From a virus, in the IMG/VR virus record IMGVR_UViG_3300030060_001517, positions 1 to 56,203 of that record: a stretch of 56,203 nt of DNA, one strand, 5' to 3'. Shown here piece after piece: positions 3,247-52,628 of this stretch. The notes under the pieces were generated by a model, which did not search any database, was not told the origin of the DNA, and worked only from the letters and a program-made list of their open reading frames with translations. Position numbers and translations under genes: made by a program. Positions within the stretch are counted from its first letter, which is position 1. The number at the start of each line of letters is the position of its first letter.

Positions 3247-5855
3247 TGGCTGAAGAAGAAAATGAAATAGAAGTTACTAAGGAAGAGATAACAATGGTAG
3301 AAATACCTGAAGAAGAATCTCTTTTAGAAGATACTCCTGACGGAGGAGCTATTTTAAAAATGGAAAAAATAACAGTAAGCGGATCTACACCACATTTTGA
3401 AAACATAGTAGAAAAAGTAGATCAGAAAAAATTAAAGATAGCTATCACCGACCTATTAACTAAAATAAGTAGAGATAAAGAAGCTAGACAAAAAAGAGAT
3501 CAACAGTACGAAGAAGGTTTGCGCCGAACAGGATTAGGCGATGATGCGCCTGGTGGAGCACAATTTAGCGGAGCTAATAAAGTTGTTCACCCAATGTTAG
3601 TAGAAGCATGTGTAGATTTTTCTGCACGATTCGTTAAAGAAGTGTTTCCGCCAACAGGACCAGTAAAAAGTAAAATTATAGGTGAAGCTGATAAAGTTAA
3701 AGTAGAAAAAGCTCAGCGCAAAACAGAGTTTATGAATTGGCAAGTAACTCAACAAATGATTGAGTTCAGATCTGAGTTAGAACAATTAAGCACCCAACTA
3801 CCTTTAGGTGGTGGTCAATATATGAAGTACATGTGGAATGCTCAATATAACAGACCGACATCTGAATTCGTTCCTATTGACGATATATACTTACCATTTT
3901 CTGCTACTAACTTTTATACGGCAGAAAGAAAAACTCATGTTCAATATATTACTCACATGGAGTATGAAAAAAGAGTAGAAGCAGGAATGTATTGTGATAT
4001 TGATTTACCTACTCCTAATGAACCTGAGTTTAGTAAAGCAGAACAAGCAAACGAAAAAATTGAAGGTAAGCAAAATACATCTTATAACGAAGATGGTTTA
4101 CGAACTATATTTGAAGTTTACACTTCTTTAGATATAGAAGATGAATGCGGATTAGCTCCGTATATTTTAAGTATTGATAAATCTTCTGATAAACCTTTAT
4201 CTCTTTATCGTAACTGGGAAGAAGACGACGAAAGGAAAAACGAATTACAATGGATTGTAGAGTTTCCTTTTGTTCCTTGGCGAGGTGCTTACCCTATCGG
4301 ACTTACACATATGATTGGTGGTTTGAGTGGAGCAGCAACTGGAGCACTCAGAGCATTATTAGATTCAGCTTACATTCAAAATGTTCCTACTCTTCTTAAA
4401 TTAAAAGGAGGACCTAACGGACAAACAATTAATGTTCAACCAACAGAGATTGTAGAAATGGAAGGAGGTGCACTAATTGATGATGTTCGTAAATTAGCTA
4501 TGCCTTTACCTTTTGCTGGACCGAGTAATACTTTATTTCAATTATTAGGTTTTTTAGTTAATGCTGGTAAGGGAGTAGTACAAACTTCTTTTGAAAAGTT
4601 TAACGAGCAGAATCCTAATGCGCCAGTAGGAACTACCATGGCTATAATTGAACAAGGAATGGTTGTATTCAGTTCTATTCATTCTCGTTTACATGCAGCG
4701 ATGGGAAGAAGTCTTGACATTTTACACAGAATAAATTCTATGTACTATACGCAAGAAGACCTTGACGCATTAAATGCTGGATTAGATATAACTGTAGAAG
4801 ATTTTGATGGACCTGCTGATGTTGTTCCGATCAGTAATCCCGCTATATTTAGTGAAGCACAAAGATTTGCTCAAATACAAGCGATCATGCAGAGAGCACA
4901 AGCTATGCCACAGATGTATGATCAAAGAGCTGTTGAAGAAATGTTCTTAAGAACATTAAAAGTACCTGCAGGAGAAGTTTTGAATCCTCTTCCTGGTAGT
5001 GAAGATAGAGATCCTGTAAGTGAAAATGTTGCGGTAGCAATGGGTCAACCTATTTATGTTTTACCTCAACAAGATCATATAGCTCACATGGAAGTTCATA
5101 TGGCATTTTTAAAATCGCCAGTGTTTGGTCAAAATCCTGCTATAATGCCTACGATACTTTACCCTATGGCTCTTCATTTAAAAGATCATTTACTTAATTA
5201 TTATTTAGTAGAAGCACATAATGCAGTAGATCAGGCTCAACAAAAACAATTAATGCCTGAAGAAGCCCAACAACAAGTAGAAATTATTATAAAAGTTCAA
5301 GAATTTATTCAACAACAGTTAGGATCATTTGCTCAAGAACTTGCTCAAATAAGCGAAGCATCGCAGCAATTTAAACCTGAAGATCCAGCTATGAGAGGAA
5401 ATGATTCTATGAAAATAGCAGAACTCAGTGCTCAAATTAAACAAGGTGAAATACAACAAAGAGCGGAAAGAGATAATGCTCAATTACAGTTTGATAATTT
5501 AAAACTTGATACAAATAGTCAGTTACAACAAATGAAAATGCAACAGACAGCAGAAATTGAGAGAGCTAAACTTATGGACAAAATGGAAGACAGAAAAGAG
5601 AAAGCTGAACTGCAAGGTCTTAGAGAAGTTTCTGAAACTGAGAGAAATAATATTAGAGAAATGTCTGAAACTGATAGACAAAATATTAGAGAAGATAATG
5701 AAAATGCTAGGAAGAAAGCAGATCTTAAAGCTAGAGAAAGAATGAATAATGCTGATAATAAGACAGCTAAAGAACTAGCTGAAATGGAAATGTTAGCTGA
5801 CGAAAAAACTTCTTTTACTACAGGATCAGGAATTGACTTTGATCCTAAACCATAA
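3246..5855 (+). CDS. Portal protein
   Basis: An 869-residue protein in the canonical place after TerL. It forms the ring through which DNA enters and leaves the capsid. The middle part (about 90-640) looks like podovirus portals: SGANKVVHPMLVEACVDFSA near residue 110, then a long conserved core with FPFVPWRGAYPIGLTHMIGG. The last ~200 residues are a Q/E/R-rich coiled coil, making it longer than usual portals and possibly forming the barrel inside the head. This tail holds an 11-residue tandem repeat (5631-5696). GGAGGG precedes the ATG, and the stop overlaps a strong inverted repeat at 5854. Confidence 0.85.
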   Translation: MAEEENEIEVTKEEITMVEIPEEESLLEDTPDGGAILKMEKITVSGSTPHFENIVEKVDQKKLKIAITDLLTKISRDKEARQKRDQQYEEGLRRTGLGDDAPGGAQFSGANKVVHPMLVEACVDFSARFVKEVFPPTGPVKSKIIGEADKVKVEKAQRKTEFMNWQVTQQMIEFRSELEQLSTQLPLGGGQYMKYMWNAQYNRPTSEFVPIDDIYLPFSATNFYTAERKTHVQYITHMEYEKRVEAGMYCDIDLPTPNEPEFSKAEQANEKIEGKQNTSYNEDGLRTIFEVYTSLDIEDECGLAPYILSIDKSSDKPLSLYRNWEEDDERKNELQWIVEFPFVPWRGAYPIGLTHMIGGLSGAATGALRALLDSAYIQNVPTLLKLKGGPNGQTINVQPTEIVEMEGGALIDDVRKLAMPLPFAGPSNTLFQLLGFLVNAGKGVVQTSFEKFNEQNPNAPVGTTMAIIEQGMVVFSSIHSRLHAAMGRSLDILHRINSMYYTQEDLDALNAGLDITVEDFDGPADVVPISNPAIFSEAQRFAQIQAIMQRAQAMPQMYDQRAVEEMFLRTLKVPAGEVLNPLPGSEDRDPVSENVAVAMGQPIYVLPQQDHIAHMEVHMAFLKSPVFGQNPAIMPTILYPMALHLKDHLLNYYLVEAHNAVDQAQQKQLMPEEAQQQVEIIIKVQEFIQQQLGSFAQELAQISEASQQFKPEDPAMRGNDSMKIAELSAQIKQGEIQQRAERDNAQLQFDNLKLDTNSQLQQMKMQQTAEIERAKLMDKMEDRKEKAELQGLREVSETERNNIREMSETDRQNIREDNENARKKADLKARERMNNADNKTAKELAEMEMLADEKTSFTTGSGIDFDPKP
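5631..5696 (+). repeat. Two 33-bp tandem repeats in the portal coiled coil
   Basis: Units 5631-5663 and 5664-5696 encode SETERNNIREM and SETDRQNIRED. The 11-residue period suits a coiled coil and the units may vary in number between relatives. Confidence 0.8.
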
Positions 5856-38366: not shown

Positions 38367-38834
38367 ATGTTAAATTTTGAAAATATGAAGATGAAAGAAT
38401 TGGTTGATTATTATAATAGTTACGAAGGTAATAAACCTATTAAAAAGTTTCGTGATAAATCTACTGCTATAGCAAGATGTAAAAATTTATTACAAGCAGT
38501 TATAGAAGTAGAAGATGCTGGGTATCCTGCTGTAAAGAAAGACCTCACTGGTCAAGCATTAAGAAATAGAAATATGAGTGCGTCTTTACAGTTAGATAGA
38601 ACTATTATGGTTATGTGTCCTTATGTTGAAGAAGAAGGTGATGGAGGTTTTCTTAAAGAACCAGAACTTTCTGAATTCAATAATGTTCATCAAATGTGGC
38701 AGATACATCCTGAGTGGGTTACTGGTGCTCAAGTAGATAGATTAACTCGTATTCTTTACAGTAATGCTAAGCAAGGTAAAAGAGTAGAAGTTACTATCAA
38801 TGATAGAACTTTTATGTTAAAGAATGTGAGATAA
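38367..38834 (+). CDS. Small operon protein, possible nucleic-acid binder
   Basis: 155 residues. The first 45 (NMKMKELVDYYNSYEGNKPI, then KKFRDKSTAIARCKNLL) look like a short helical module found at the start of some phage regulators. The rest has a DRLTRILYSNAKQGKRVEVT stretch. Start has TAAGGAGG upstream. It lies between the DUF6011 gene and the modification enzymes. No enzymatic motif is visible. Confidence 0.6.
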   Translation: MLNFENMKMKELVDYYNSYEGNKPIKKFRDKSTAIARCKNLLQAVIEVEDAGYPAVKKDLTGQALRNRNMSASLQLDRTIMVMCPYVEEEGDGGFLKEPELSEFNNVHQMWQIHPEWVTGAQVDRLTRILYSNAKQGKRVEVTINDRTFMLKNVR

Positions 38835-39787
38835 TGAAATCTGTATTTGAAACATATTCCCTCAATAGAGAAGATATAAAATGGGAAAACCATTTATCTT
38901 CTCTAACCCCATGGGAGTTAAAGTCAGGAGTCTGGTTTAAAAGAGACGACTATTTTGCTCCCTTGGGGTACAGTGGTCCTAACGGATCAAAAATGAGACA
39001 ACTTATTTGGTATATAAATAGATTTAGAGAAGGTAAAAATCATATTGTGACTGGAGCATCTATTCAGTCACCTCAATTAAGTATGAGTGCTATAGTAGGT
39101 GCTCATTATGGTCTTAAAAATAGACAAGTAGTTTACAGCAAACCTCACACAGTTACAACTCATGTTAATCCTAAAATTGCTGCTGGTTTTGGCGCAGTGT
39201 TTGAATATGCTTCTGGTCCTTATAATCCTATCATTCAAAAAAGAGTAGCAGATTTAACTCAAGAAAATTCATTAGTAGTAGAATATGGTATAACAGTTCC
39301 TCATACTCGTTATCCTGCAGAAGATGTAAGAAAATTTCATGAGGTAGGTGCATATCAAACTTCTAATATGCCTGAGCAAGTAGAAAAATTAATAGTACCT
39401 GCTGGATCTTGTAACTCTTTAACAAGTGTATTATTAGGATTGAGCAGAGACTCTAAAAATTTAAAAGAGTTATTTACTATTGGTATAGGTCCTGATAAAA
39501 GAGATTGGGTCAATGAAAGATTAAAAATAATGGGAGTAGATCCTGAGTACTTTAATTTTAAATGGAACCATTATTCTTTACATGACAATAAGTATGCTTC
39601 TTATAGTGACAAATTTAAAGATGAAACATTTGAAGATATTATTTTTCATCCTACTTATGAAGCTAAGATGTGGAGATGGTTAAGAGAAAGAAATCCTTTA
39701 GACTTTGATGATAAAACAGCATTTTGGATAGTAGGTAGTGCTGCTGATACTAAAATAGTAGAACCTTTTTATACGGAGATAGACTGA
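38834..39787 (+). CDS. PLP-dependent enzyme, fold type II (ACC deaminase/D-Cys desulfhydrase-like)
   Basis: 317 residues. WFKRDD and PNGSKMRQL place the Schiff-base lysine at K53. TGASIQSPQLSMSA (73-86) is the substrate loop, and PAGSCNSLTS (189-198) the phosphate-binding loop. These mark the tryptophan-synthase-beta fold group close to ACC deaminase and D-cysteine desulfhydrase. It opens the set of five enzymes for thymidine hypermodification, so it may tailor an amino-acid side chain on the base. Characterised hypermodifying phages use PLP enzymes for decarboxylation; a fold-type II member would do elimination or replacement chemistry. The reaction is inferred, not shown. Confidence 0.75.
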   Translation: MKSVFETYSLNREDIKWENHLSSLTPWELKSGVWFKRDDYFAPLGYSGPNGSKMRQLIWYINRFREGKNHIVTGASIQSPQLSMSAIVGAHYGLKNRQVVYSKPHTVTTHVNPKIAAGFGAVFEYASGPYNPIIQKRVADLTQENSLVVEYGITVPHTRYPAEDVRKFHEVGAYQTSNMPEQVEKLIVPAGSCNSLTSVLLGLSRDSKNLKELFTIGIGPDKRDWVNERLKIMGVDPEYFNFKWNHYSLHDNKYASYSDKFKDETFEDIIFHPTYEAKMWRWLRERNPLDFDDKTAFWIVGSAADTKIVEPFYTEID

Positions 39788-40554
39788 TGGTTATAACAAC
39801 AACCAAGTGGAAGATTTTAAATAAATATGATTTTGAATTACTACCAGGAGAAGCACAAAAGATGCCAGATGGTGATTACAGTTATTATCAATATTTAAAT
39901 AAAAGATGGCAAGAGACAGGTAAAAATGTTTTGTGTCAAGAATTCTTATTAGCTCCTCATAAAAGAAGCGATAATGCTAATGATTTGATTGTAGCTGAAC
40001 CATTTGGAGGATGCGGTGTGTTTTCTATAGCTATTCAACATTTGTTAAAACCTATGCATCATTATATAGGAGAGTTAGATGAAGATTGTGTAAGACAGTT
40101 ATATTTTTGCACTGCTTCTTATCCAGGAGTAACAGTCAGTCAAGAAGATGCTCATGAAAGATTAGGAGTTTTACCTGCAGATATTTACGTATGTGATTTT
40201 CCTTTCTTCACTTTAATAAAACATAGTGAACAAGATATGTGGGTTAAAGAAATGGAAAGAATGATTTCTCATAAACCTGAAGCTATCATTATAACTGATG
40301 GTTCAAGTTGCCGATGGCATTTCACTGCAAAGAATTTAAAGAAGAGAGGATATGATGTTAATCATCATCGAGAAAGTTATGCTAAAGTTTTTGACAAATA
40401 CTTTAAAGAAAAATATAATTATAGAGTAACTGCTGTAGCTTATCATGGTACATGTTTTTATATTAAAATACAACCAGCAGGATCGTATTTAGATAAAATA
40501 GCAATTAAACATATACCTGCAGGAGTAGGTATCAATGGGTTAAGACCGCAATGA
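39787..40554 (+). CDS. Methyltransferase-like Rossmann protein
   Basis: 255 residues. AEPFGGCGVFSIA (70-82) resembles the SAM-binding loop, followed by YIGELDED (acidic end of strand 2) and VCDFPFF (135-141), which replaces the usual DPPY-type motif of amino-methyltransferases. It overlaps neighbours by 1 and 4 bases inside the modification operon. It may methylate the modified base or its side chain, or have lost methylation and serve as a DNA-binding partner. Similarity is moderate. Confidence 0.65.
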   Translation: MVITTTKWKILNKYDFELLPGEAQKMPDGDYSYYQYLNKRWQETGKNVLCQEFLLAPHKRSDNANDLIVAEPFGGCGVFSIAIQHLLKPMHHYIGELDEDCVRQLYFCTASYPGVTVSQEDAHERLGVLPADIYVCDFPFFTLIKHSEQDMWVKEMERMISHKPEAIIITDGSSCRWHFTAKNLKKRGYDVNHHRESYAKVFDKYFKEKYNYRVTAVAYHGTCFYIKIQPAGSYLDKIAIKHIPAGVGINGLRPQ

Positions 40555-41552
40555 AAAATTATAAATTAACAGAAAATAGAAGAGAGTATTTTGATGCTCT
40601 TTACAAATTAAATTTAGAATATGGTATTATGCCTGGGTTGGTTTATTTATATATGCCTTCATTAGCTAAGCATTACTCTTGGAATAATGAAGACAAATTA
40701 TGGTTTTCTTTTTTAAATGGTATGACGCAAAATCCAATAACATCAATTCAATTATTAGAACAGTTACCTAGTGTTCCTCCTGCTGGAGCTACTCTTTCTA
40801 AATTTAATAACTGGTTTAATGATAATTGGGATATTTTAAAATATGATACTGATAGAAGATATCAAAAGAAAGATACTGTTGATGCTATTAAATCTTATGC
40901 TCAGATTTTATCTAATTATTCTTCTCAAGAAGAAATGCTTACTAATAGTTATAAAGAACTTTGGAACTTAGTAAGTAATAATTATAATTCTTTTGGTAGA
41001 TTATCTTCATTTAGTTATTTAGAATATGTTTATTTAAATGGTTTCGGTGCTGACTGTGATAATTTATTATTTGAAGATAAATCTGGAAGCAAATCACATC
41101 GTAATGGTATGATGATTTTACATGGAGCAGATAATTTTGTTTGGGATAAAAGAGCCAGGAATGAGTTTACTGGAGATTATCCTGATTTCAAAAAAGTATG
41201 TGATTGGTTAAATGAAGTTGCTACTCAACATTTAACTGAGTTTAAAAATAAACATCCTGATATTTCACATGTAGGTAATTTTACTTTTGAAAGTAATTTA
41301 TGTACATTTAAAAATCATTTCTTTGGCAGAAGATATCCTGGTGTTTATGCAGACATGGCATGGCAAAGAATTGAGTGGGCAGAAGAAAGAGGGATTGATA
41401 CTTCTATTTTTAAAAATATAAGAGAAGAACATTTACCTGATTGGTTAAGAATTGAATGTTCTAATTTAAAAGTAGATATCAATAAATTTGGTTCATTGTT
41501 TCAAGAACAAGGAACACCATTTAGAGGAGATAAATTTTTATGTCAAATATAA
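40551..41552 (+). CDS. aGPT-Pplase-like base transferase (alpha-glutamyl/putrescinyl thymine pyrophosphorylase family)
   Basis: 333 residues, mainly helical. Stretches WFSFLNGMTQNPIT (51-64), DTDRRY (99-104), FGRLSSFSYLEY (148-159) and GSKSHRNG (179-186) look like the aGPT-Pplase2 clade. In hypermodifying phages this clade replaces the (pyro)phosphate on 5-hydroxymethyl-dU in DNA with an amino-acid or amine. The next three genes encode the kinase parts and dUMP hydroxymethylase, which supports the call. The attached group cannot be read from sequence. Confidence 0.75.
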   Translation: MKNYKLTENRREYFDALYKLNLEYGIMPGLVYLYMPSLAKHYSWNNEDKLWFSFLNGMTQNPITSIQLLEQLPSVPPAGATLSKFNNWFNDNWDILKYDTDRRYQKKDTVDAIKSYAQILSNYSSQEEMLTNSYKELWNLVSNNYNSFGRLSSFSYLEYVYLNGFGADCDNLLFEDKSGSKSHRNGMMILHGADNFVWDKRARNEFTGDYPDFKKVCDWLNEVATQHLTEFKNKHPDISHVGNFTFESNLCTFKNHFFGRRYPGVYADMAWQRIEWAEERGIDTSIFKNIREEHLPDWLRIECSNLKVDINKFGSLFQEQGTPFRGDKFLCQI

Positions 41553-42127
41553 TACTTAGAATATGTGGAACTTTCGGCTCTGGTAAAACTACCGCAGTTA
41601 GAAAATTTTTAGAAGATTATCCTAATGAAACTTTATATGTAGAAAATAAAATAGCTGGTTATAAATTAGATTTAAAATCTGAAGATATAACTAAACCTGT
41701 TTTTGTTATAGGTAAGTACGACAATGTTTGTGGCGGAACAGACTCTATGGCTACTCAACAATTAATTGCTGATAGAATAATGCAAGCACATCCTCATGGA
41801 CATGTTATGTATGAAGGTGCTTTAGTTTCTGCTTCCGGATTAGGAGGTAAAGTCACTCAAGCAACTGAAGAAACAGGATGTACTGTTTATGCATTTTTAG
41901 ATACTCCAGAAGATTTATGTATTGAAAGAGTTAAACAAAGAAGATTAAATGCTGGAAATGAAAAAGAATTTAATCCTAAAAATTTAATAGATAAATTTAG
42001 GAGTGTTGCTAATTGTAAAAATAACCTTTTAGCAGCAAAATGCGCAGTAGCTGATTTAGATTATACTAACACGCATCCTACTTTATTAAACTTAATTAGA
42101 AATTTTGATCAAGGGAGATTTGAATGA
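41540..42127 (+). CDS. 5-hmdU DNA kinase, P-loop subunit
   Basis: 195 residues. P-loop CGTFGSGKTT (9-18), then VIGKYDNVCGGTDSMATQQL (57-76), a characteristic strand and loop of the P-loop kinases that phosphorylate 5-hydroxymethyluracil in phage DNA, and an AFLDTPEDLCIERVKQRR lid region. It would activate the base for the transferase encoded upstream. It overlaps both neighbours (13 and 4 bases), and the helical domain usually linked with such kinases is encoded separately next door. Confidence 0.8.
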   Translation: MSNIILRICGTFGSGKTTAVRKFLEDYPNETLYVENKIAGYKLDLKSEDITKPVFVIGKYDNVCGGTDSMATQQLIADRIMQAHPHGHVMYEGALVSASGLGGKVTQATEETGCTVYAFLDTPEDLCIERVKQRRLNAGNEKEFNPKNLIDKFRSVANCKNNLLAAKCAVADLDYTNTHPTLLNLIRNFDQGRFE

Positions 42128-43047
42128 TACAAGATAGACCATATATTCCGCCTACTGCTAATAATGTTACTTCATTAAAGGCTTTGTTATATTTTGTTTG
42201 GGAAAGAGAAGCTATCCGTATAGCAAAAGAAAATAGGTATAATGGAGATCTAACTGATGATCCTATTTTGAAAAAATATAAATTCACTAACATCAGAAGA
42301 AAAGATGATCGTGTTAGTAAATGGATTATAGATAATATTATTCTTAATGTTGGTATAAATGAAAATAGTTTATGGTTCACTTTATTAATTGCTCGTTTAA
42401 TTAATTGGCCACCAACACTTCAGTATCTTCTTAATTGTGAAGAAAATATATTATTAAAAGACCCTAATAATTTTGATCCTAAAAGTTTTTCTGTAGCTAT
42501 AGAAAAATTTAGAGAAACAAACTCTAAAGCATATTCTGGTGCTTATATGGTTTACCCTACTAAAAAAGATGTAGGATCTGTTAAATCTTTATCTTTAGGT
42601 AATCATATTATTAAACCTGTTTTAGATATAGCAGAAGAAGTAGATTACATTTTATATACAGAAAATAGTATTGAAAAATTTGTTAATATTTTATCTAATT
42701 GTTTTGGTATAAGCACTTTCATTGCTGGGCAAGTAGCAGCAGATCTAACTTATTGTGAAGCACCATTATGCGATGCGTCAGATTTATATACTTATGCTCC
42801 AATAGGACCAGGAAGTTCTAAAGGATTAAATTATCTTTTTAATAGAAAACCTTACGCAACTTGGAAACAAGAAGATTTTAATGATCAGTTACAGATGATA
42901 AATGAACAAATTAAAGATGAGTTAGAAATAACTGATTTAACTTTACACGATGTTCAAAATGTAATGTGTGAATATAGTAAATATACCAGAACTTTATTAG
43001 GAGAAGGTAAACCTAAAACTATGTATAAACCAGAGGAGAGCTTTTAA
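42124..43047 (+). CDS. 5-hmdU DNA kinase helical-domain-like protein
   Basis: 307 residues, helical. FVWEREAIRI (19-28), DDPILKKYKFTNIRRKDDRV (45-64) and APIGPGSSKGLN fit the HMUDK helical domain that accompanies 5-hmdU DNA kinases; an aGPT-Pplase1-like protein is the alternative. It immediately follows the P-loop subunit (4-base overlap), implying a two-protein kinase. It overlaps the next gene by one base. Confidence 0.7.
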   Translation: MIQDRPYIPPTANNVTSLKALLYFVWEREAIRIAKENRYNGDLTDDPILKKYKFTNIRRKDDRVSKWIIDNIILNVGINENSLWFTLLIARLINWPPTLQYLLNCEENILLKDPNNFDPKSFSVAIEKFRETNSKAYSGAYMVYPTKKDVGSVKSLSLGNHIIKPVLDIAEEVDYILYTENSIEKFVNILSNCFGISTFIAGQVAADLTYCEAPLCDASDLYTYAPIGPGSSKGLNYLFNRKPYATWKQEDFNDQLQMINEQIKDELEITDLTLHDVQNVMCEYSKYTRTLLGEGKPKTMYKPEESF

Positions 43048-44066
43048 TGGAACTTAGAGTAGAAAATGTAAATGAAGCATTTCAAGAAATATTATGGAAA
43101 TTTAAAGTACTTAATCTTGAAACAGAAGAAACTAGAAATGGACCAGCTTTAGTTTATCCAGAAATGGTAACAACTATTTATAGGTTTCCTGATGAAAGAG
43201 TTTTATTTCACCCTAAAAGAGATGCTAATCCTATATTTCATTTAATGGAAGCTATATGGATGATTGCAGGTAGAAATGATGTTGAGTTTGTAAATCAATT
43301 TAATAGTAATATGAAAAACTTTAGCGATGATGGAAAAGTGTTCAATGCTGCTTATGGTCATAGATGGAGAAAACATTTTGGTACCGATCAATTATTAGAT
43401 GTTATAAATTTATTAAAACAAGATATAAGCACTCGCCAAGCTGTTATTCAGATGTGGGATGCTGAAGATTTAGTAAAAGACACTTGTGATAAAGCATGTA
43501 ATACTCAGTTAATATTTGACACCAGGAACAATAAATTAAATATGACAGTGTTTAATCGTTCTAACGATGTTTGGTGGGGAGCATATGGTGCTAATGCTGT
43601 TCATTTTAGTTTCTTGCAAGAAGTGATAGCTAGAGCTATTGATTATCCTTTAGGAGAATACAGGCAAGTTTCTAATAATTTTCATTTTTATACTGAGTTA
43701 TATGATGCTATGAGTTTATTAGATAACCCTCCTAATGAACATTCACACAATCCTTACCATAATGGAGAAGTTTCATCTTTACCTATAATGGATAATAATG
43801 ATTATGCAGGGTTTATTTTAGATTGTGAACAGTTTTGCAAAGATCCTTTTGGTTTAGCTAATTTAGAAACTTATAAATTTAATCATAGTTTCTTTATGTC
43901 AGTAGCTCGTCCTATGGCTCTTATTTCACATATAAGAAAAAATAAAGATAATGACAGTAAATATTATGATGGTATGCTTCAAGCTAAAAGTATAAAAGCA
44001 CCTGATTGGCAAAGAGCATGTGTAGAATGGATAACCAGAAGAAATATGTTAGATGTTCCATTTTAA
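43047..44066 (+). CDS. dUMP hydroxymethylase (thymidylate synthase superfamily)
   Basis: 339 residues. Thymidylate synthase features: FNAAYGHRWRKHFG near residue 99, catalytic Cys in DKACNTQLIF (C151), and VFNRSNDVWWGAYGANAVHF, where RS(N)D binds dUMP phosphate and the following loop positions the folate. The context, directly after 5-hmdU kinase genes, favours 5-hydroxymethyl-dUMP synthesis rather than dTMP, but the two cannot be separated by reading alone. The last gene of the operon; P5 follows. Confidence 0.8.
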   Translation: MELRVENVNEAFQEILWKFKVLNLETEETRNGPALVYPEMVTTIYRFPDERVLFHPKRDANPIFHLMEAIWMIAGRNDVEFVNQFNSNMKNFSDDGKVFNAAYGHRWRKHFGTDQLLDVINLLKQDISTRQAVIQMWDAEDLVKDTCDKACNTQLIFDTRNNKLNMTVFNRSNDVWWGAYGANAVHFSFLQEVIARAIDYPLGEYRQVSNNFHFYTELYDAMSLLDNPPNEHSHNPYHNGEVSSLPIMDNNDYAGFILDCEQFCKDPFGLANLETYKFNHSFFMSVARPMALISHIRKNKDNDSKYYDGMLQAKSIKAPDWQRACVEWITRRNMLDVPF

Positions 44067-44144: not shown

Positions 44145-44642
44145 ATGAAAAAGACACTTGAATTTATATTAGATGGAGCAGCAGTTAAAAGATTTCATAC
44201 TGTTACTGTGCTTCATGAAGAAACAGTAGGGCATCATTCTCATAATGTAGCTATGATGTGTCTTCTACTTAACCCCAATGCTAGTAGAAATTTATTATTA
44301 GCAGCAATGTTTCATGATTTAGCTGAGCATAAAACAGGTGATATACCTTCTCCTGCAAAACGAGAATATAATATAACTGAACAAGTGACTTCTTTAGAAA
44401 GTGAGTTAATGGTAAAAGCAGGTATAAAACTTCCTGTGTTAACTGAAGAAGAGGAAAGAACTTTGAAGTTAGCAGACATAGCATCAGGTATGATATATTG
44501 TATTCAAGAAGCACAGATGGGTAATAATAAAATGTTAAAAATATTAAATACTTATTTAAAGTATACTAAACAATTTTTCTTATCAGGAAGAGAAGAAGAT
44601 TTATTTTGTCATATTGAAGAATTACAACTGGAAGGATTATAA
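44145..44642 (+). CDS. HD-domain 5'-deoxynucleotidase (YfbR-like)
   Basis: 165 residues. HHSHNVAMM (H33), AAMFHDLAEHKTGDI (HD at 57-58, E61) and a later LADIASG Asp form the metal site of HD phosphohydrolases, and the arrangement is like the YfbR 5'-deoxynucleotidases. It would dephosphorylate dNMPs or dNTPs. In a phage that makes hydroxymethyl-dUMP it could remove dTMP or dTTP competitor; a DatZ-like dATPase role is less likely as no PurZ is present. It has its own promoter P5. Confidence 0.75.
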   Translation: MKKTLEFILDGAAVKRFHTVTVLHEETVGHHSHNVAMMCLLLNPNASRNLLLAAMFHDLAEHKTGDIPSPAKREYNITEQVTSLESELMVKAGIKLPVLTEEEERTLKLADIASGMIYCIQEAQMGNNKMLKILNTYLKYTKQFFLSGREEDLFCHIEELQLEGL

Positions 44643-44643
44643 A

Positions 44644-44946
44644 ATGTCAGCAAATAATAAACAGATAGGTGGTAATCATTATAAACATGACTCTGGAGAA
44701 GAACATTGGGATCGTGTTAATAGATTAAATCTAAGTTATTTTCAAGGATGCGCTACTAAATATATTGAAAGAGCATATTTAAAAGGTAAACCTGTAGAAG
44801 ATTTACAAAAGGCATCTCATTTTATTCAAAAATTAATTGAGATTGAACAAGAAAAAGAAGGTGAACCTACATCTTCTTATGTTAATCAAGATCCTGATCT
44901 TAAAAATGTATACAGTCAACTACCTTTATTTAAAGAGGAAAATTAA
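44644..44946 (+). CDS. DUF3310-family small protein
   Basis: 100 residues. QIGGNHYKHDSGEEHWDRVN, YFQGCATKYIERAYLKGK and EDLQKASHFIQKLIEIE fit the DUF3310 phage family, often placed with nucleotide-metabolism genes. Start 44644 has GGAAGGA upstream. Its partner role is unknown. It overlaps the polymerase gene by one base. Confidence 0.8.
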   Translation: MSANNKQIGGNHYKHDSGEEHWDRVNRLNLSYFQGCATKYIERAYLKGKPVEDLQKASHFIQKLIEIEQEKEGEPTSSYVNQDPDLKNVYSQLPLFKEEN

Positions 44947-46772
44947 TGCATACTTGGGTCTTTGATACAGAAACATTACCTAATAGAACTTTATTAAGTG
45001 CTAAATGTATAGAGACTGGGGAATGGTTTGATGTTTGGAGACATGAAGAAAATGCAATAGATAAACTTTTAAATTTTGTTAATCAGCCACATACCTTTGT
45101 AGGTTTTAATTCTTTATCATTTGATAATATTGTAGTATCTGCATTTTGTGCTGGAAGAAAAGAACAAGAAATAAAAAGAATGGCAGACGATTTAATTCAA
45201 AATAGATTACCTTACTGGAAAGCATTTCCTAAATATCAGTTAAGAAAATACTTAAAAGATCATATTGATTTAATTGAAGTTGCTCCTTCATTTGTAGGCT
45301 TAAAAGCATATGGTGCTAGAATGCATATGACTACTTTACAAGATATGCCTTTATCTCATGATACTTATATAACTCCTGATCAAGAGCAACAAATATTAGA
45401 ATATTGTCATAATGATGTGTTAACTACTCAACAGCTTTTATTTAATTTAGAAAAAGAAATAATGTTAAGAGTAACTATGAGTAAAAAATATGGAGTAGAT
45501 TTAAGAAGTAAATCAGACTCTCAAATGGCAGAACAGGCTTATATAAAAACCATGGGCTTAAAAAGACAAAATAATACAATACCTGAAACTATAACTTACA
45601 ATCCTCCTTCTTTTTTACAATCATTTAAAGATCCTGTTTTGAAAAATTTATTATTAAGAATACAAAATCATACATTTATAATGAATAAAAAATCAGGTCA
45701 TGTTGTATTACCTGAGTTTTTAGGTAAAGCTACTATAAAATTTGGTAACGGAGAATATCAATTAGGTGTAGGAGGAATACATTCAGTTCATGATAAAAAA
45801 GTCTGTTACATTGCTGGTGATAAAATTATGGGTGAATTAGATGCTGCTTCATTTTATCCTTCTATTATTTTAGAATGTGGTTTCATTCCTAAAAGTTTAG
45901 GAGAGTCTTTTGTTGAAGAGTATCGTAATATTTATAATCAAAGATTAGAAGCAAAAGCATCTGGTGATAAAGCGACTAACGAAACATTAAAGATTAGTTT
46001 AAATGGTACTTTTGGTAAACTAGCAAGTAAATATAGTGTTCTTTATTCACCAGACTTGATGTTAGCTGTTACTCTTACAGGACAGTTAACCCTGTTACTA
46101 TTGATAGAAAAATTAGAAGATTTAGGAGTAGAAACTTTAAGTGCTAATACTGACGGCATAGCTATAAGATATGATAAAATTATACATGATCAAGTACAAA
46201 AAGAAATAGATAAATTTAGTAAGTTATCTAAATTTATATTTGAGTTTACTCCTTATAGAGTTTTAGCTATGAAAGATGTTAATAATTATATAGCAATTAA
46301 ACCAGATAAAACATTAAAAGTTAAAGGAATATACTCTCCACTCTCGCTTAGAAAAAATCCTACTGCTCAAGTATGCTCAGATGCCGTAGGAGAGTGGTTA
46401 GCTAAAGGTGTACCTTTCACAGAGACAATTTATAAAAGTCCTTTCTCAGGCTTTATATCAGCTCGTAATGTTACTGGAGGTGGACAACAAGATGGTAAAT
46501 ATTTAGGTAAGGTGGTCAGGTGGTATCAATCTACTGACAGTGTAGAGCCGATAAGATATTATACTAATAATAACAAAGTAGCTAAAACAGATGGAGCTAA
46601 AGCATGCATGACTGTTGAAGATTTTGTTACACATCCTACCGATTTAGATTATGATTGGTATTTAAAAGAATCAATTAAAATAGCAGTAGCTGTAGGTGGT
46701 TCTAATTTTTTAACAGACCATGAGCTAGAACTTATCACTCCTGCTCCTAAACAAAGGAAGAAAAAGAAATGA
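44946..46772 (+). CDS. DNA polymerase, family B
   Basis: 608 residues, small for the family. Exonuclease site FDTETLP (D7, E9) and YCHNDV; polymerase motif A ELDAASFYPSII (D299), motif B KISLNGTFGK (K349, N353) and motif C SANTDGIAI (D403). Motif C has Asn at the place of the first Asp of the usual DTD, as in some small phage polymerases; the essential second Asp is kept. It replicates the phage genome with the primase and helicase downstream. The C-terminus is a KQRKKKK tail. Overlap of 4 bases with the next gene. Confidence 0.9.
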   Translation: MHTWVFDTETLPNRTLLSAKCIETGEWFDVWRHEENAIDKLLNFVNQPHTFVGFNSLSFDNIVVSAFCAGRKEQEIKRMADDLIQNRLPYWKAFPKYQLRKYLKDHIDLIEVAPSFVGLKAYGARMHMTTLQDMPLSHDTYITPDQEQQILEYCHNDVLTTQQLLFNLEKEIMLRVTMSKKYGVDLRSKSDSQMAEQAYIKTMGLKRQNNTIPETITYNPPSFLQSFKDPVLKNLLLRIQNHTFIMNKKSGHVVLPEFLGKATIKFGNGEYQLGVGGIHSVHDKKVCYIAGDKIMGELDAASFYPSIILECGFIPKSLGESFVEEYRNIYNQRLEAKASGDKATNETLKISLNGTFGKLASKYSVLYSPDLMLAVTLTGQLTLLLLIEKLEDLGVETLSANTDGIAIRYDKIIHDQVQKEIDKFSKLSKFIFEFTPYRVLAMKDVNNYIAIKPDKTLKVKGIYSPLSLRKNPTAQVCSDAVGEWLAKGVPFTETIYKSPFSGFISARNVTGGGQQDGKYLGKVVRWYQSTDSVEPIRYYTNNNKVAKTDGAKACMTVEDFVTHPTDLDYDWYLKESIKIAVAVGGSNFLTDHELELITPAPKQRKKKK

Positions 46773-51084: not shown

Positions 51085-51582
51085 ATGAATATTTTCTTTA
51101 CAGACCGCAATCCTGTTCTGGCTGCTCAATCTCAGCCAGACAAGATGTTAGTTAAAATGGTATTAGAAACTGCTCAGATGTTATGCACTGCTCATAGAGT
51201 TTGTGATCCTGATGAGACCTGGCATGATGAGGTTGGGTTATATAAAATTGCTTTCAAAAATCATCCTTGCTCAGTTTGGGCAAGACAATCTGTAGGAAAC
51301 TATCATTGGTTGTGTTTACATTTTCATGCTCTTTGTGATGAGTACAGATTAAGATATCAAAGAGTCCATGCTTGTGATAAAAAGTTTAGAAAACATTTTA
51401 ATAATGTTTTATATGTTGCACCTAAAAATATAGCTCAATATTCTAGAACTCCTGTTGCTCAAGCTATGCCAGATGAATATAAAAATGATGATCCTGTAAA
51501 AGCATATAGAGATTATGTGATCAATGAAAAACATTATGCTGAATGGAACCATAATCGTAGTAAACCTGATTGGTGGAAGTAA
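51085..51582 (+). CDS. Conserved phage protein (His/Cys-rich), unknown
   Basis: 165 residues. NIFFTDRNPVLAAQSQPDKM, KMVLETAQMLCTAHR, HPCSVWARQSVGNYHWLCLH and EYRLRYQRVHAC form a pattern I know from a widespread phage protein that lacks a settled function. Several His and Cys could bind metal. Not the T4 DenV family as far as can be read. Overlaps the next gene by one base. Confidence 0.65.
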   Translation: MNIFFTDRNPVLAAQSQPDKMLVKMVLETAQMLCTAHRVCDPDETWHDEVGLYKIAFKNHPCSVWARQSVGNYHWLCLHFHALCDEYRLRYQRVHACDKKFRKHFNNVLYVAPKNIAQYSRTPVAQAMPDEYKNDDPVKAYRDYVINEKHYAEWNHNRSKPDWWK

Positions 51583-51840: not shown

Positions 51841-51993
51841 ATGTCAGATAAAGAATATGAAATGACTAGAGAAGAGTACCTCGCTGATCAACATGAATAT
51901 GATAAAGCGATGGATCATTTTGATAAAGATGGCTACTGTGAATTTTGTGGTCGTCATGCTGATGAAGGGATACATTATAAATGTTGGAAGTAA
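51841..51993 (+). CDS. Tiny zinc-finger-like protein
   Basis: 50 residues. The acidic N-terminus is followed by YCEFCGRHADEGIHYKCW, with CxxC, His and Cys that could hold zinc. AAGGAGGA precedes the ATG. It overlaps the oxygenase gene by 13 bases. Perhaps a small protein-binding adaptor. Confidence 0.6.
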   Translation: MSDKEYEMTREEYLADQHEYDKAMDHFDKDGYCEFCGRHADEGIHYKCWK

Positions 51994-52628
51994 AAGAAGA
52001 CGGTCTGGTAGCTAATTTATTTTCTACTCAAGTATACAAATTTACTAAATATAGTAAAGTGAGTGTTACTCCATTTGATTGCTCAAAAGAAGAGGAAGAT
52101 CTATATAATAATGAAGGTAATTTTACCAGTTCAAATAATTATATTTTAGATTTACCTCATTATAAATTAATAAAAGACAGGATCATGGAAGGATTAAAGT
52201 TTTATGCATATGAAGTTTTGTATATGGATCCTTCTTATGAATTTTATATCACTCAATCTTGGCTTAACATAACTCGACCTCGTGGTTATCATCATCAACA
52301 TCAACATGCTAATTCTATAATCAGCGGTATATATTATGTAGATTGTGGGGAAGGAGTTAATGAAAGTCAAACTACATTAATTAATACTAATTTTATAAAT
52401 ATTACAGGAAATCAAAATTGGTATTTTAAGAAAACAAAATACACTTCTCAAAATACTCAGGAGTGGATTATTCCTGGCAGCAATAATGACATAATTTATT
52501 TTCCTTCAACATTACAACATCATGTAGGAACAAATACAGCTAAAACAAATAGAAAGAGTTTATCTTTTAATACTTTTATAAGAGGAAAAATAGGAGATCA
52601 AAATTATTTAAGTGAATTGAAACTTTAA
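51981..52628 (+). CDS. 2OG-Fe(II) oxygenase of the phage type
   Basis: 215 residues. SWLNITRPRGYHHQHQHANS and SGIYYV contain the proximal iron-binding His residues, FPSTLQHHVGTN the distal one, and NRKSLSFNTFIRG the 2-oxoglutarate-binding arginine. This is like the 2OG-FeII_Oxy_5 family common in cyanophages and other marine phages. The substrate is unknown: protein, small molecule or DNA base. It is unrelated in motif to the 20495 oxygenase. Confidence 0.8.
   Translation: MLEVKEDGLVANLFSTQVYKFTKYSKVSVTPFDCSKEEEDLYNNEGNFTSSNNYILDLPHYKLIKDRIMEGLKFYAYEVLYMDPSYEFYITQSWLNITRPRGYHHQHQHANSIISGIYYVDCGEGVNESQTTLINTNFINITGNQNWYFKKTKYTSQNTQEWIIPGSNNDIIYFPSTLQHHVGTNTAKTNRKSLSFNTFIRGKIGDQNYLSELKL

What the first reader, a model, noticed from the sequence alone, without database searches (positions are those of the whole stretch)
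38834..44066. Complete thymidine hypermodification operon with an unusual enzyme set
Seen: six adjacent, mostly overlapping genes encode a fold-type II PLP enzyme, a Rossmann methyltransferase-like protein, an aGPT-Pplase-like transferase (FGRLSSFSYLEY, GSKSHRNG), a 5-hmdU kinase P-loop protein (CGTFGSGKTT, GKYDNVCGGTD), a kinase helical-domain-like protein, and a thymidylate synthase superfamily enzyme. Known: in phages such as ViI, M6, SP10 and phiW-14, hydroxymethyl-dUMP is put into DNA, activated by a 5-hmdU kinase, and the phosphate is replaced by an amino acid or amine. Inferred: this phage does the same, but the combination of a fold-type II PLP enzyme and a methyltransferase-like protein points to an end product that may differ from the known ones.
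Basis: partly seen in the sequence, partly recalled or inferred. Interest (0 to 1): 0.88.

Follow-up and report, generated by a model that had tools for sequence, protein, structure and literature searches.

The report
Phage thymidine-modification operon with extra methyltransferase
This virus carries a compact gene set that very probably swaps part of its thymidine for an amino-acid-derived base, as some known phages do, plus a methyltransferase-like protein from a so far unnamed family that occurs almost only beside the amino-acid-attaching enzyme and may add a methyl group to the modified base.

Summary
38834-44066 carries six overlapping genes on the + strand: a fold-type II PLP enzyme, a Rossmann SAM-methyltransferase-like protein (MT), an amino acid:DNA transferase (ADDT), a P-loop 5-hmdU kinase, its helical partner, and a dUMP-hydroxymethylase-type thymidylate synthase homologue. 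A 5'-deoxynucleotidase (HD) gene follows and belongs to the set.

A fold-type II PLP enzyme is standard in known pathways (M6 gp52, ViI gp182), and a split kinase is known from M6. The operon is a chimera: hmdU synthesis and kinase genes are M6-like, ADDT and PLP are ViI-type, and there is no radical-SAM enzyme. The default product is therefore ViI-like, 5-(2-aminoethoxy)methyl-dU.

MT is the unusual part. It has no Pfam or PHROG family, and one of 50,697 sequenced phages (Pam3) has a distant homologue. Yet 43 viral contigs retrieved through MT itself carry ADDT wherever long enough (41 of 41; 40 adjacent), in TS-type and Tet/JBP-type phages. In marine Tet-type operons MT sits in the slot PLP fills elsewhere. 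MT is absent from 57 of 64 contigs with the same core. It is probably an optional tailoring enzyme, perhaps an N-methyltransferase of the side chain. Chemistry is unproven.

The parts
38834..39787 (+). Fold-type II PLP-dependent enzyme, ViI gp182-like; inferred decarboxylase of the attached amino acid; Lys53 is the predicted Schiff-base lysine
   Evidence: phrog_3650 5e-81 and threonine dehydratase phrog_7093 2e-5; tblastn to ViI-like phages; 35% to ViI gp182, E 2e-67; profile match to D-cysteine desulfhydrase 7e-4; AlphaFold pLDDT 90 and Foldseek 5e-12
39787..40554 (+). Class I (Rossmann) SAM-methyltransferase-like protein (MT), unnamed family; motifs EPFGGCG, GELD, EDAH, DFPF
   Evidence: no significant Pfam/PHROG/NCBIfam/PDB sequence match; AlphaFold pLDDT 86 with 761 MTase matches; next to ADDT across lineages
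40551..41552 (+). Amino acid:DNA transferase (ADDT, aGPT-Pplase2), ViI subtype with GSKSHRNG motif
   Evidence: PF18724 2e-16; alignment and tree with ViI gp199 and M6 gp51
41540..42127 (+). P-loop 5-hmdU DNA kinase, M6 gp54-like; Walker A GTFGSGKTT
   Evidence: PF18748 1.3e-5, below cut-off; all 12 family members match; M6 gp54 2e-11
42124..43047 (+). HMUDK helical-domain protein, M6 gp55-like (aGPT-Pplase1 in other annotations), partner of the kinase
   Evidence: PF18723 3e-41; M6 gp55 4e-32, Pam3 gp50 1e-41
43047..44066 (+). Thymidylate-synthase-superfamily pyrimidine (dUMP) 5-hydroxymethylase
   Evidence: PF00303 2e-20; MilA CMP hydroxymethylase 7.5e-22; M6 gp58 42% identity 2e-88; catalytic Cys kept and Asn, not Asp, at the uracil/cytosine-discriminating position
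44145..44642 (+). HD/YfbR-like 5'-deoxynucleotidase, M6 gp59-like; inferred to remove dTMP from the pool
   Evidence: PF12917 5e-14; present in 61 of 64 relatives with the five-gene core
44614..44946 (+). DUF3310-like small protein, M6 gp61-like, conserved between HD and DNA polymerase
   Evidence: M6 gp61 42% identity, 4e-17; PF11753 5.5e-5, just under cut-off

Best explanation
This is a thymidine hypermodification operon of the ViI type built on an M6-like base, with an added methyltransferase-like tailoring protein. Inferred steps: (1) 43047 makes hmdUMP and 44145 removes dTMP, so hmdU enters replicating DNA. (2) 41540 with 42124 phosphorylates the 5-hydroxymethyl group of some hmdU residues in DNA. 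(3) 40551 replaces the phosphate with a free amino acid, serine by analogy with ViI. (4) 38834 decarboxylates the adduct, leaving a primary amine (5-(2-aminoethoxy)methyl-dU). (5) 39787 acts on the adduct, most likely as a SAM-dependent N-methyltransferase of the amine. Shown here: gene families, order, conservation, folds, and the linkage of MT to ADDT. Inferred: the amino acid, the product, and any MT activity. The purpose is presumably protection from host nucleases.
For: Families. PLP fold and Lys. Subtype: 38834 groups with ViI gp182, the Montesquieu protein and the L011 fusion, apart from M6 gp52/Pam3 gp43 (branch support 1.0); 40551 carries the GSxSxRNG motif shared with ViI gp199, Zemanar and Montesquieu and missing in M6 gp51/Pam3 gp47; no radical-SAM homologue in the window or the fetched relatives. 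PLP-ADDT link: natural PLP-ADDT fusion proteins (L104:4353-6491, 712 aa; also L121-L128). MT-ADDT link: 14 contigs found through MT all carry ADDT, 13 adjacent, one elsewhere on the contig; 27 of 27 further untruncated contigs found through a divergent MT subfamily read Tet - MT - ADDT. MT tree branching matches that of ADDT. The only sequenced phage with an MT homologue, Pam3 (profile E 3e-12), also has ADDT. MT keeps the SAM-binding motifs; its weak family matches are amino-methyltransferases: RrnaAD 2e-4 (3 of 19 members), D12 0.12, and hhalign against Dam at p 2e-4.
Against: No chemical data. 41540 scores just under its Pfam cut-off. ViI gp199 is distant from 40551 (26%), so the amino acid may not be serine. 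The fourth residue of motif IV in MT varies (F, H, K, N, S), unlike true adenine methyltransferases, so MT may not methylate a base, or anything. MT is absent from 57 of 64 sister operons, so it is not needed for the core pathway. The key papers on the ViI/M6 enzymology (Lee et al. 2018, 2021) were not readable here; those steps rest on memory.
Confidence: 0.65

Rival explanations
1. The core pathway is as described, but 39787 is an ordinary DNA (adenine) methyltransferase that adds a second, independent layer of protection and only happens to be encoded there.
For: Class I fold; weak similarity to the D12/Dam and RrnaAD adenine methyltransferase families. Both activities would serve against restriction.
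Against: The family is confined to ADDT-bearing contigs (41 of 41 untruncated) and lies directly upstream of ADDT in unrelated backbones. No hit in the bacterial genome collection (a pattern-limited scan). No target-recognition domain between motif I and motif IV; aromatic residue of motif IV not conserved.
Confidence: 0.15
2. 39787 is a catalytically silent MTase-fold partner that steers or activates ADDT (substrate or sequence specificity).
For: Strict adjacency to ADDT; tandem copies in L094 with diverged motif IV (EFPF in one copy), reminiscent of METTL3/METTL14-type pairs; variable residue in motif IV.
Against: SAM-binding motifs are conserved (EPFGGCG/EYFAGxG, ELD, D in motif III). Found alone with ADDT in Tet-type operons in place of the PLP enzyme, which fits an enzyme better than a helper.
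Confidence: 0.2
3. The product differs from ViI because ADDT uses another amino acid, and the PLP enzyme does something other than decarboxylation, for example elimination as its fold relatives do.
For: ADDT is only 26% identical to ViI gp199 and closer to mycobacteriophage and Glutamicibacter phage proteins whose products are unknown to me. Closest solved folds are desulfhydrases and deaminases.
Against: The same fold relatives apply to ViI and M6 PLP enzymes, for which decarboxylation is the published role (Lee et al. 2021, from memory). 38834 groups with ViI gp182.
Confidence: 0.25

Closest known systems
Salmonella phage ViI (Kuttervirus) 5-NeOmdU pathway: gp60 TS, gp61 kinase, gp182 PLP, gp199 ADDT
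   Same: Same enzyme classes; PLP 35% identical over the full length; ADDT of the same subtype with the GSxSxRNG motif; no radical-SAM enzyme found in the window
   Different: ViI genes are scattered over 157 kb; kinase and TS of the window are closer to M6; no MT homologue in the whole ViI genome
Pseudomonas phage M6 / SN1 (Yuavirus) 5-NedU cassette gp51-gp59
   Same: Same layout upstream of DNA polymerase: ADDT, PLP, kinase, helical protein, TS (42%), HD, small DUF3310-like protein
   Different: M6 has a radical-SAM gene (gp53) and M6-type ADDT and PLP; no MT homologue; different DNA polymerase type
Pseudanabaena phage Pam3
   Same: Carries PLP, ADDT, kinase, helical protein, TS, HD and the only MT homologue (gp39, 24%, profile E 3e-12) among sequenced phages
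   Different: PLP and ADDT are of the M6 type, a photolyase-annotated gene at the place of M6's radical-SAM gene is present, MT lies several genes upstream
Tet/JBP-type ADDT operons (Mycobacterium phage Zemanar gp1-gp4; IMG/VR L026, L011, L133-L180)
   Same: ADDT of the same subtype with a P-loop kinase; PLP, MT or both as partners
   Different: The hydroxymethyl group would come from a Tet/JBP dioxygenase acting in DNA, not from a dUMP hydroxymethylase; in Zemanar, L011 and L026 the gene block lies next to ParB and terminase genes

Membership tests
Post-replicative thymidine hypermodification through 5-hmdU (ViI/M6 kind) | Phage dUMP hydroxymethylase of the thymidylate synthase superfamily | tested here: met
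   PF00303 2e-20; nearest solved homologue a pyrimidine hydroxymethylase; 42% to M6 gp58; Asn at the uracil-specificity position
Post-replicative thymidine hypermodification through 5-hmdU (ViI/M6 kind) | 5-hmdU DNA kinase | tested here: met
   41540 with PF18748 1.3e-5 (just below cut-off) and M6 gp54 2e-11; 42124 with PF18723 3e-41; all 12 kinase relatives match PF18748
Post-replicative thymidine hypermodification through 5-hmdU (ViI/M6 kind) | Amino acid:DNA transferase PF18724 | tested here: met
   E 2e-16, 60.9 bits against a cut-off of 26.2
Post-replicative thymidine hypermodification through 5-hmdU (ViI/M6 kind) | Hypermodified thymidine in virion DNA | not testable with these tools
   needs nucleoside LC-MS
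M6 subtype (5-aminoethyl-dU) | Radical-SAM enzyme (M6 gp53-like) | tested here: not met
   no tblastn match of M6 gp53 or Pam3 gp46 in the window or fetched relatives
M6 subtype (5-aminoethyl-dU) | M6-type PLP and ADDT | tested here: not met
   38834 and 40551 fall outside the M6/Pam3 branches in the PLP and ADDT trees
ViI subtype (5-(2-aminoethoxy)methyl-dU) | ViI-type PLP and ADDT, no radical-SAM enzyme | tested here: met
   PLP 35% to gp182, E 2e-67; ADDT with GSxSxRNG motif, 26% to gp199, E 3e-25
ViI subtype (5-(2-aminoethoxy)methyl-dU) | Serine as donor and 5-NeOmdU as product | not testable with these tools
   needs enzymology or LC-MS
Class I SAM-dependent methyltransferase (39787) | Rossmann MTase fold with glycine-rich motif I and acidic motif II | tested here: met
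   AlphaFold and Foldseek, 761 matches at E<=1e-3; motifs conserved
Class I SAM-dependent methyltransferase (39787) | SAM-dependent methyl transfer | not testable with these tools
   needs an assay
D12/Dam or RrnaAD N6-adenine methyltransferases (39787) | Score over the curated family cut-off | tested here: not met
   best E in the family 0.12 for D12, 1.9e-4 for RrnaAD in 3 of 19 members; the window protein itself matches neither

The most novel reading that the evidence does not exclude
39787 founds a family of SAM-dependent tailoring enzymes dedicated to ADDT-made adducts. They methylate the amino-acid-derived side chain of the hypermodified thymidine (for example to 5-(2-methylaminoethoxy)methyl-dU), and in marine Tet-type phages they stand in for the PLP decarboxylase. 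That would be a DNA nucleoside not yet described, as far as I know.
Probability: 0.35. Interest if true: 0.82.

Novelty: new variant of a known kind. Interest (0 to 1): 0.6.

Why it matters
The operon shows that the thymidine hypermodification pathway is modular: an M6-like front end that makes and phosphorylates hmdU is joined to a ViI-type back end that attaches and trims the amino acid. It also brings out an unannotated methyltransferase-like family tied to the amino-acid-attaching enzyme in two unrelated kinds of phage. If it methylates the adduct, it adds a new chemical step, and probably a new nucleoside, to phage DNA, with consequences for resistance to restriction enzymes and for DNA-modifying tools. 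The linkage makes the question directly testable with purified proteins on hmdU DNA.

Tried and rejected
Near-identity DNA search of the operon in sequenced phages: no match.

Rejected: the PLP enzyme as the sign of a new product, because M6 and ViI have the same class. The split kinase as new, because M6 gp54 and gp55 are split too.

Considered MT as a C5-cytosine methyltransferase, since FP in motif IV and KPxxxxxTD resemble motifs IV and VI. Not supported: the catalytic Cys after Pro is F, H, K, N or S, and PF00145 does not match any of 31 records searched, the window included. Considered MT as a Dam-family enzyme: hhalign p 2e-4 but probability only 40-45%, motif I region only. PDB sequence search with the MT profile gave nothing meaningful. 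Genome-contig search for MT gave no relative, but used only two peptide patterns.

L011 at first looked like a case of MT without ADDT; its contig carries a PLP-ADDT fusion elsewhere. Lee et al. 2018 and 2021 and Iyer et al. 2013 are not held in the library.
Full report
The observation. The six ORFs lie at the stated coordinates, all with ATG starts and overlaps of 1 to 13 nt, so they form one operon. Pfam places 40551 in ADDT (2e-16), 42124 in HMUDK_hel (3e-41) and 43047 in thymidylate synthase (2e-20). 41540 matches HMUDK_HMUD1 at 1.3e-5, two bits under the cut-off. Its whole family matches the same model (12 of 12) and it aligns with M6 gp54. 38834 and 39787 have no Pfam match. The window is a 56 kb IMG/VR virus record. 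Its terminase is closest to Roseobacter phages CRP-901/902 at 44%.

The two unnamed proteins. An 18-sequence alignment of 38834 shows an invariant lysine in GxNGSKxRQ. Its profile finds D-cysteine desulfhydrase (7e-4). Its model (pLDDT 90) matches desulfhydrases and ACC deaminases (5e-12), so fold-type II is well supported. 39787 models with pLDDT 86 as a class I methyltransferase. Motif I, the acidic motif II residue and a D-x-P motif IV are conserved.

Conservation. Searching IMG/VR with 38834 gave 80 loci. In 64 distinct contigs PLP, ADDT, kinase, helical protein and TS all occur, always in the window's order; 61 also have the HD gene and only 7 have MT. In the others the PLP-ADDT interval is closed or holds various small ORFs. 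Full records of 19 MT-less relatives have no MT anywhere. MT is therefore an optional part.

Comparison with known phages. M6 gp51-gp59 are ADDT, PLP (PALP), radical SAM, kinase, helical protein, TS and HD in the same neighbourhood; ViI has gp60 TS, gp61 kinase, gp182 PLP and gp199 ADDT. Published accounts list a PLP enzyme in both cassettes (PMC9476957 for the M6-like SN1; PMC6336734 for the ViI-like PP35). ViI and M6 DNA contain 5-(2-aminoethoxy)methyl-dU and 5-(2-aminoethyl)-dU (PMC6449724). The window's TS, kinase, helical protein, HD and small protein are closest to M6, while PLP and ADDT are of the ViI type; no radical-SAM homologue was found. The default prediction is a ViI-type product. 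The enzymatic roles (amino acid donors, PLP decarboxylation, radical-SAM isomerisation) are taken from memory of Lee et al. 2021, which was not readable here.

What MT is tied to. Searches started from MT itself are free of bias towards ADDT. The first family gave 14 contigs. In 13 MT lies directly before ADDT, including distant operons (L092, L093, and L094 with two tandem MTs) and L026, where a Tet/JBP dioxygenase (PF12851, 1.4e-11) replaces the TS gene and a different small P-loop protein follows ADDT. In the fourteenth, L011, ADDT is elsewhere on the contig, fused to a PLP domain and followed by a kinase. Searching with that fusion gave 39 loci, which exposed a second MT subfamily (A2 profile E 1e-17 to 3e-30). 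An MT-led search with it gave 29 contigs; 27 read Tet - MT - ADDT and the other two end before ADDT. No PLP or TS match was found in these loci. In other Tet-type loci the order is Tet - PLP - ADDT - kinase. So MT takes the place of PLP there, and adds to it in the window's clade. The MT tree follows the ADDT tree. Contigs are related to each other, so the counts are not independent; I count about five separate backgrounds (window clade, L092-L094, L026, L011, marine Tet-type), with Pam3 as a sixth.

Substrate of the Tet-type operons. No C5-cytosine methyltransferase (PF00145) was found in the records searched, complete Zemanar and contigs of 155 and 173 kb included. This fits oxidation of thymine rather than 5-methylcytosine, but several records are fragments and a host enzyme could supply the methyl group.

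Chemistry of MT. The weak family matches are to amino-methyltransferases: RrnaAD 1.9e-4 (3 of 19 members), D12 0.12, Dam profile p 2e-4. None reaches membership for the window protein. An N-methyltransferase acting on the amine of the adduct is my leading inference; adenine methylation or a non-enzymatic helper role are rivals.

Verdict. The operon is real and complete for a known kind of pathway. I rate it a new variant of a known kind.

Noticed in passing
L104:4353-6491 (L011 contig); also L121-L128: Natural fusion of the PLP enzyme and ADDT in one protein of about 712 aa, in Tet/JBP-type operons; in L011 next to terminase genes.
   Followed up: partly
L133-L147, L160-L180: Marine contigs with Tet - MT - ADDT (- kinase) operons without a PLP enzyme.
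   Followed up: partly
L026:1787-2512 and 4216-5208: One contig encodes two ADDT-family proteins, one M6-type and one ViI-type, with a Tet/JBP dioxygenase.
   Followed up: partly
L094:850-1584 and 1581-2321: Tandem MT genes; one copy has EFPF instead of DFPF in motif IV, as if a diverged partner subunit.
   Followed up: no
phrog_800; M6 gp54 and ViI gp61 records: Annotated as terminase small subunit, but both proteins are 5-hmdU kinases by Pfam (8e-18 and 3e-116); phrog_800 spans kinase and helical domains. Looks like a propagated misannotation.
   Followed up: partly
window 44946-46772: DNA polymerase with weak family B/exonuclease matches and no BLAST match to the polymerases of M6 or Pam3, although the rest of the cassette is shared.
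   Followed up: no
window 51085-51582: Pyrimidine-dimer DNA glycosylase (PF03013, 3.5e-6) in a phage expected to have modified thymidine.
   Followed up: no
window 51981-52628: Putative 2OG-Fe(II) oxygenase (PF13759, 2e-19); another 2OG oxygenase-like ORF abuts MT in L011 (7450-8004).
   Followed up: no
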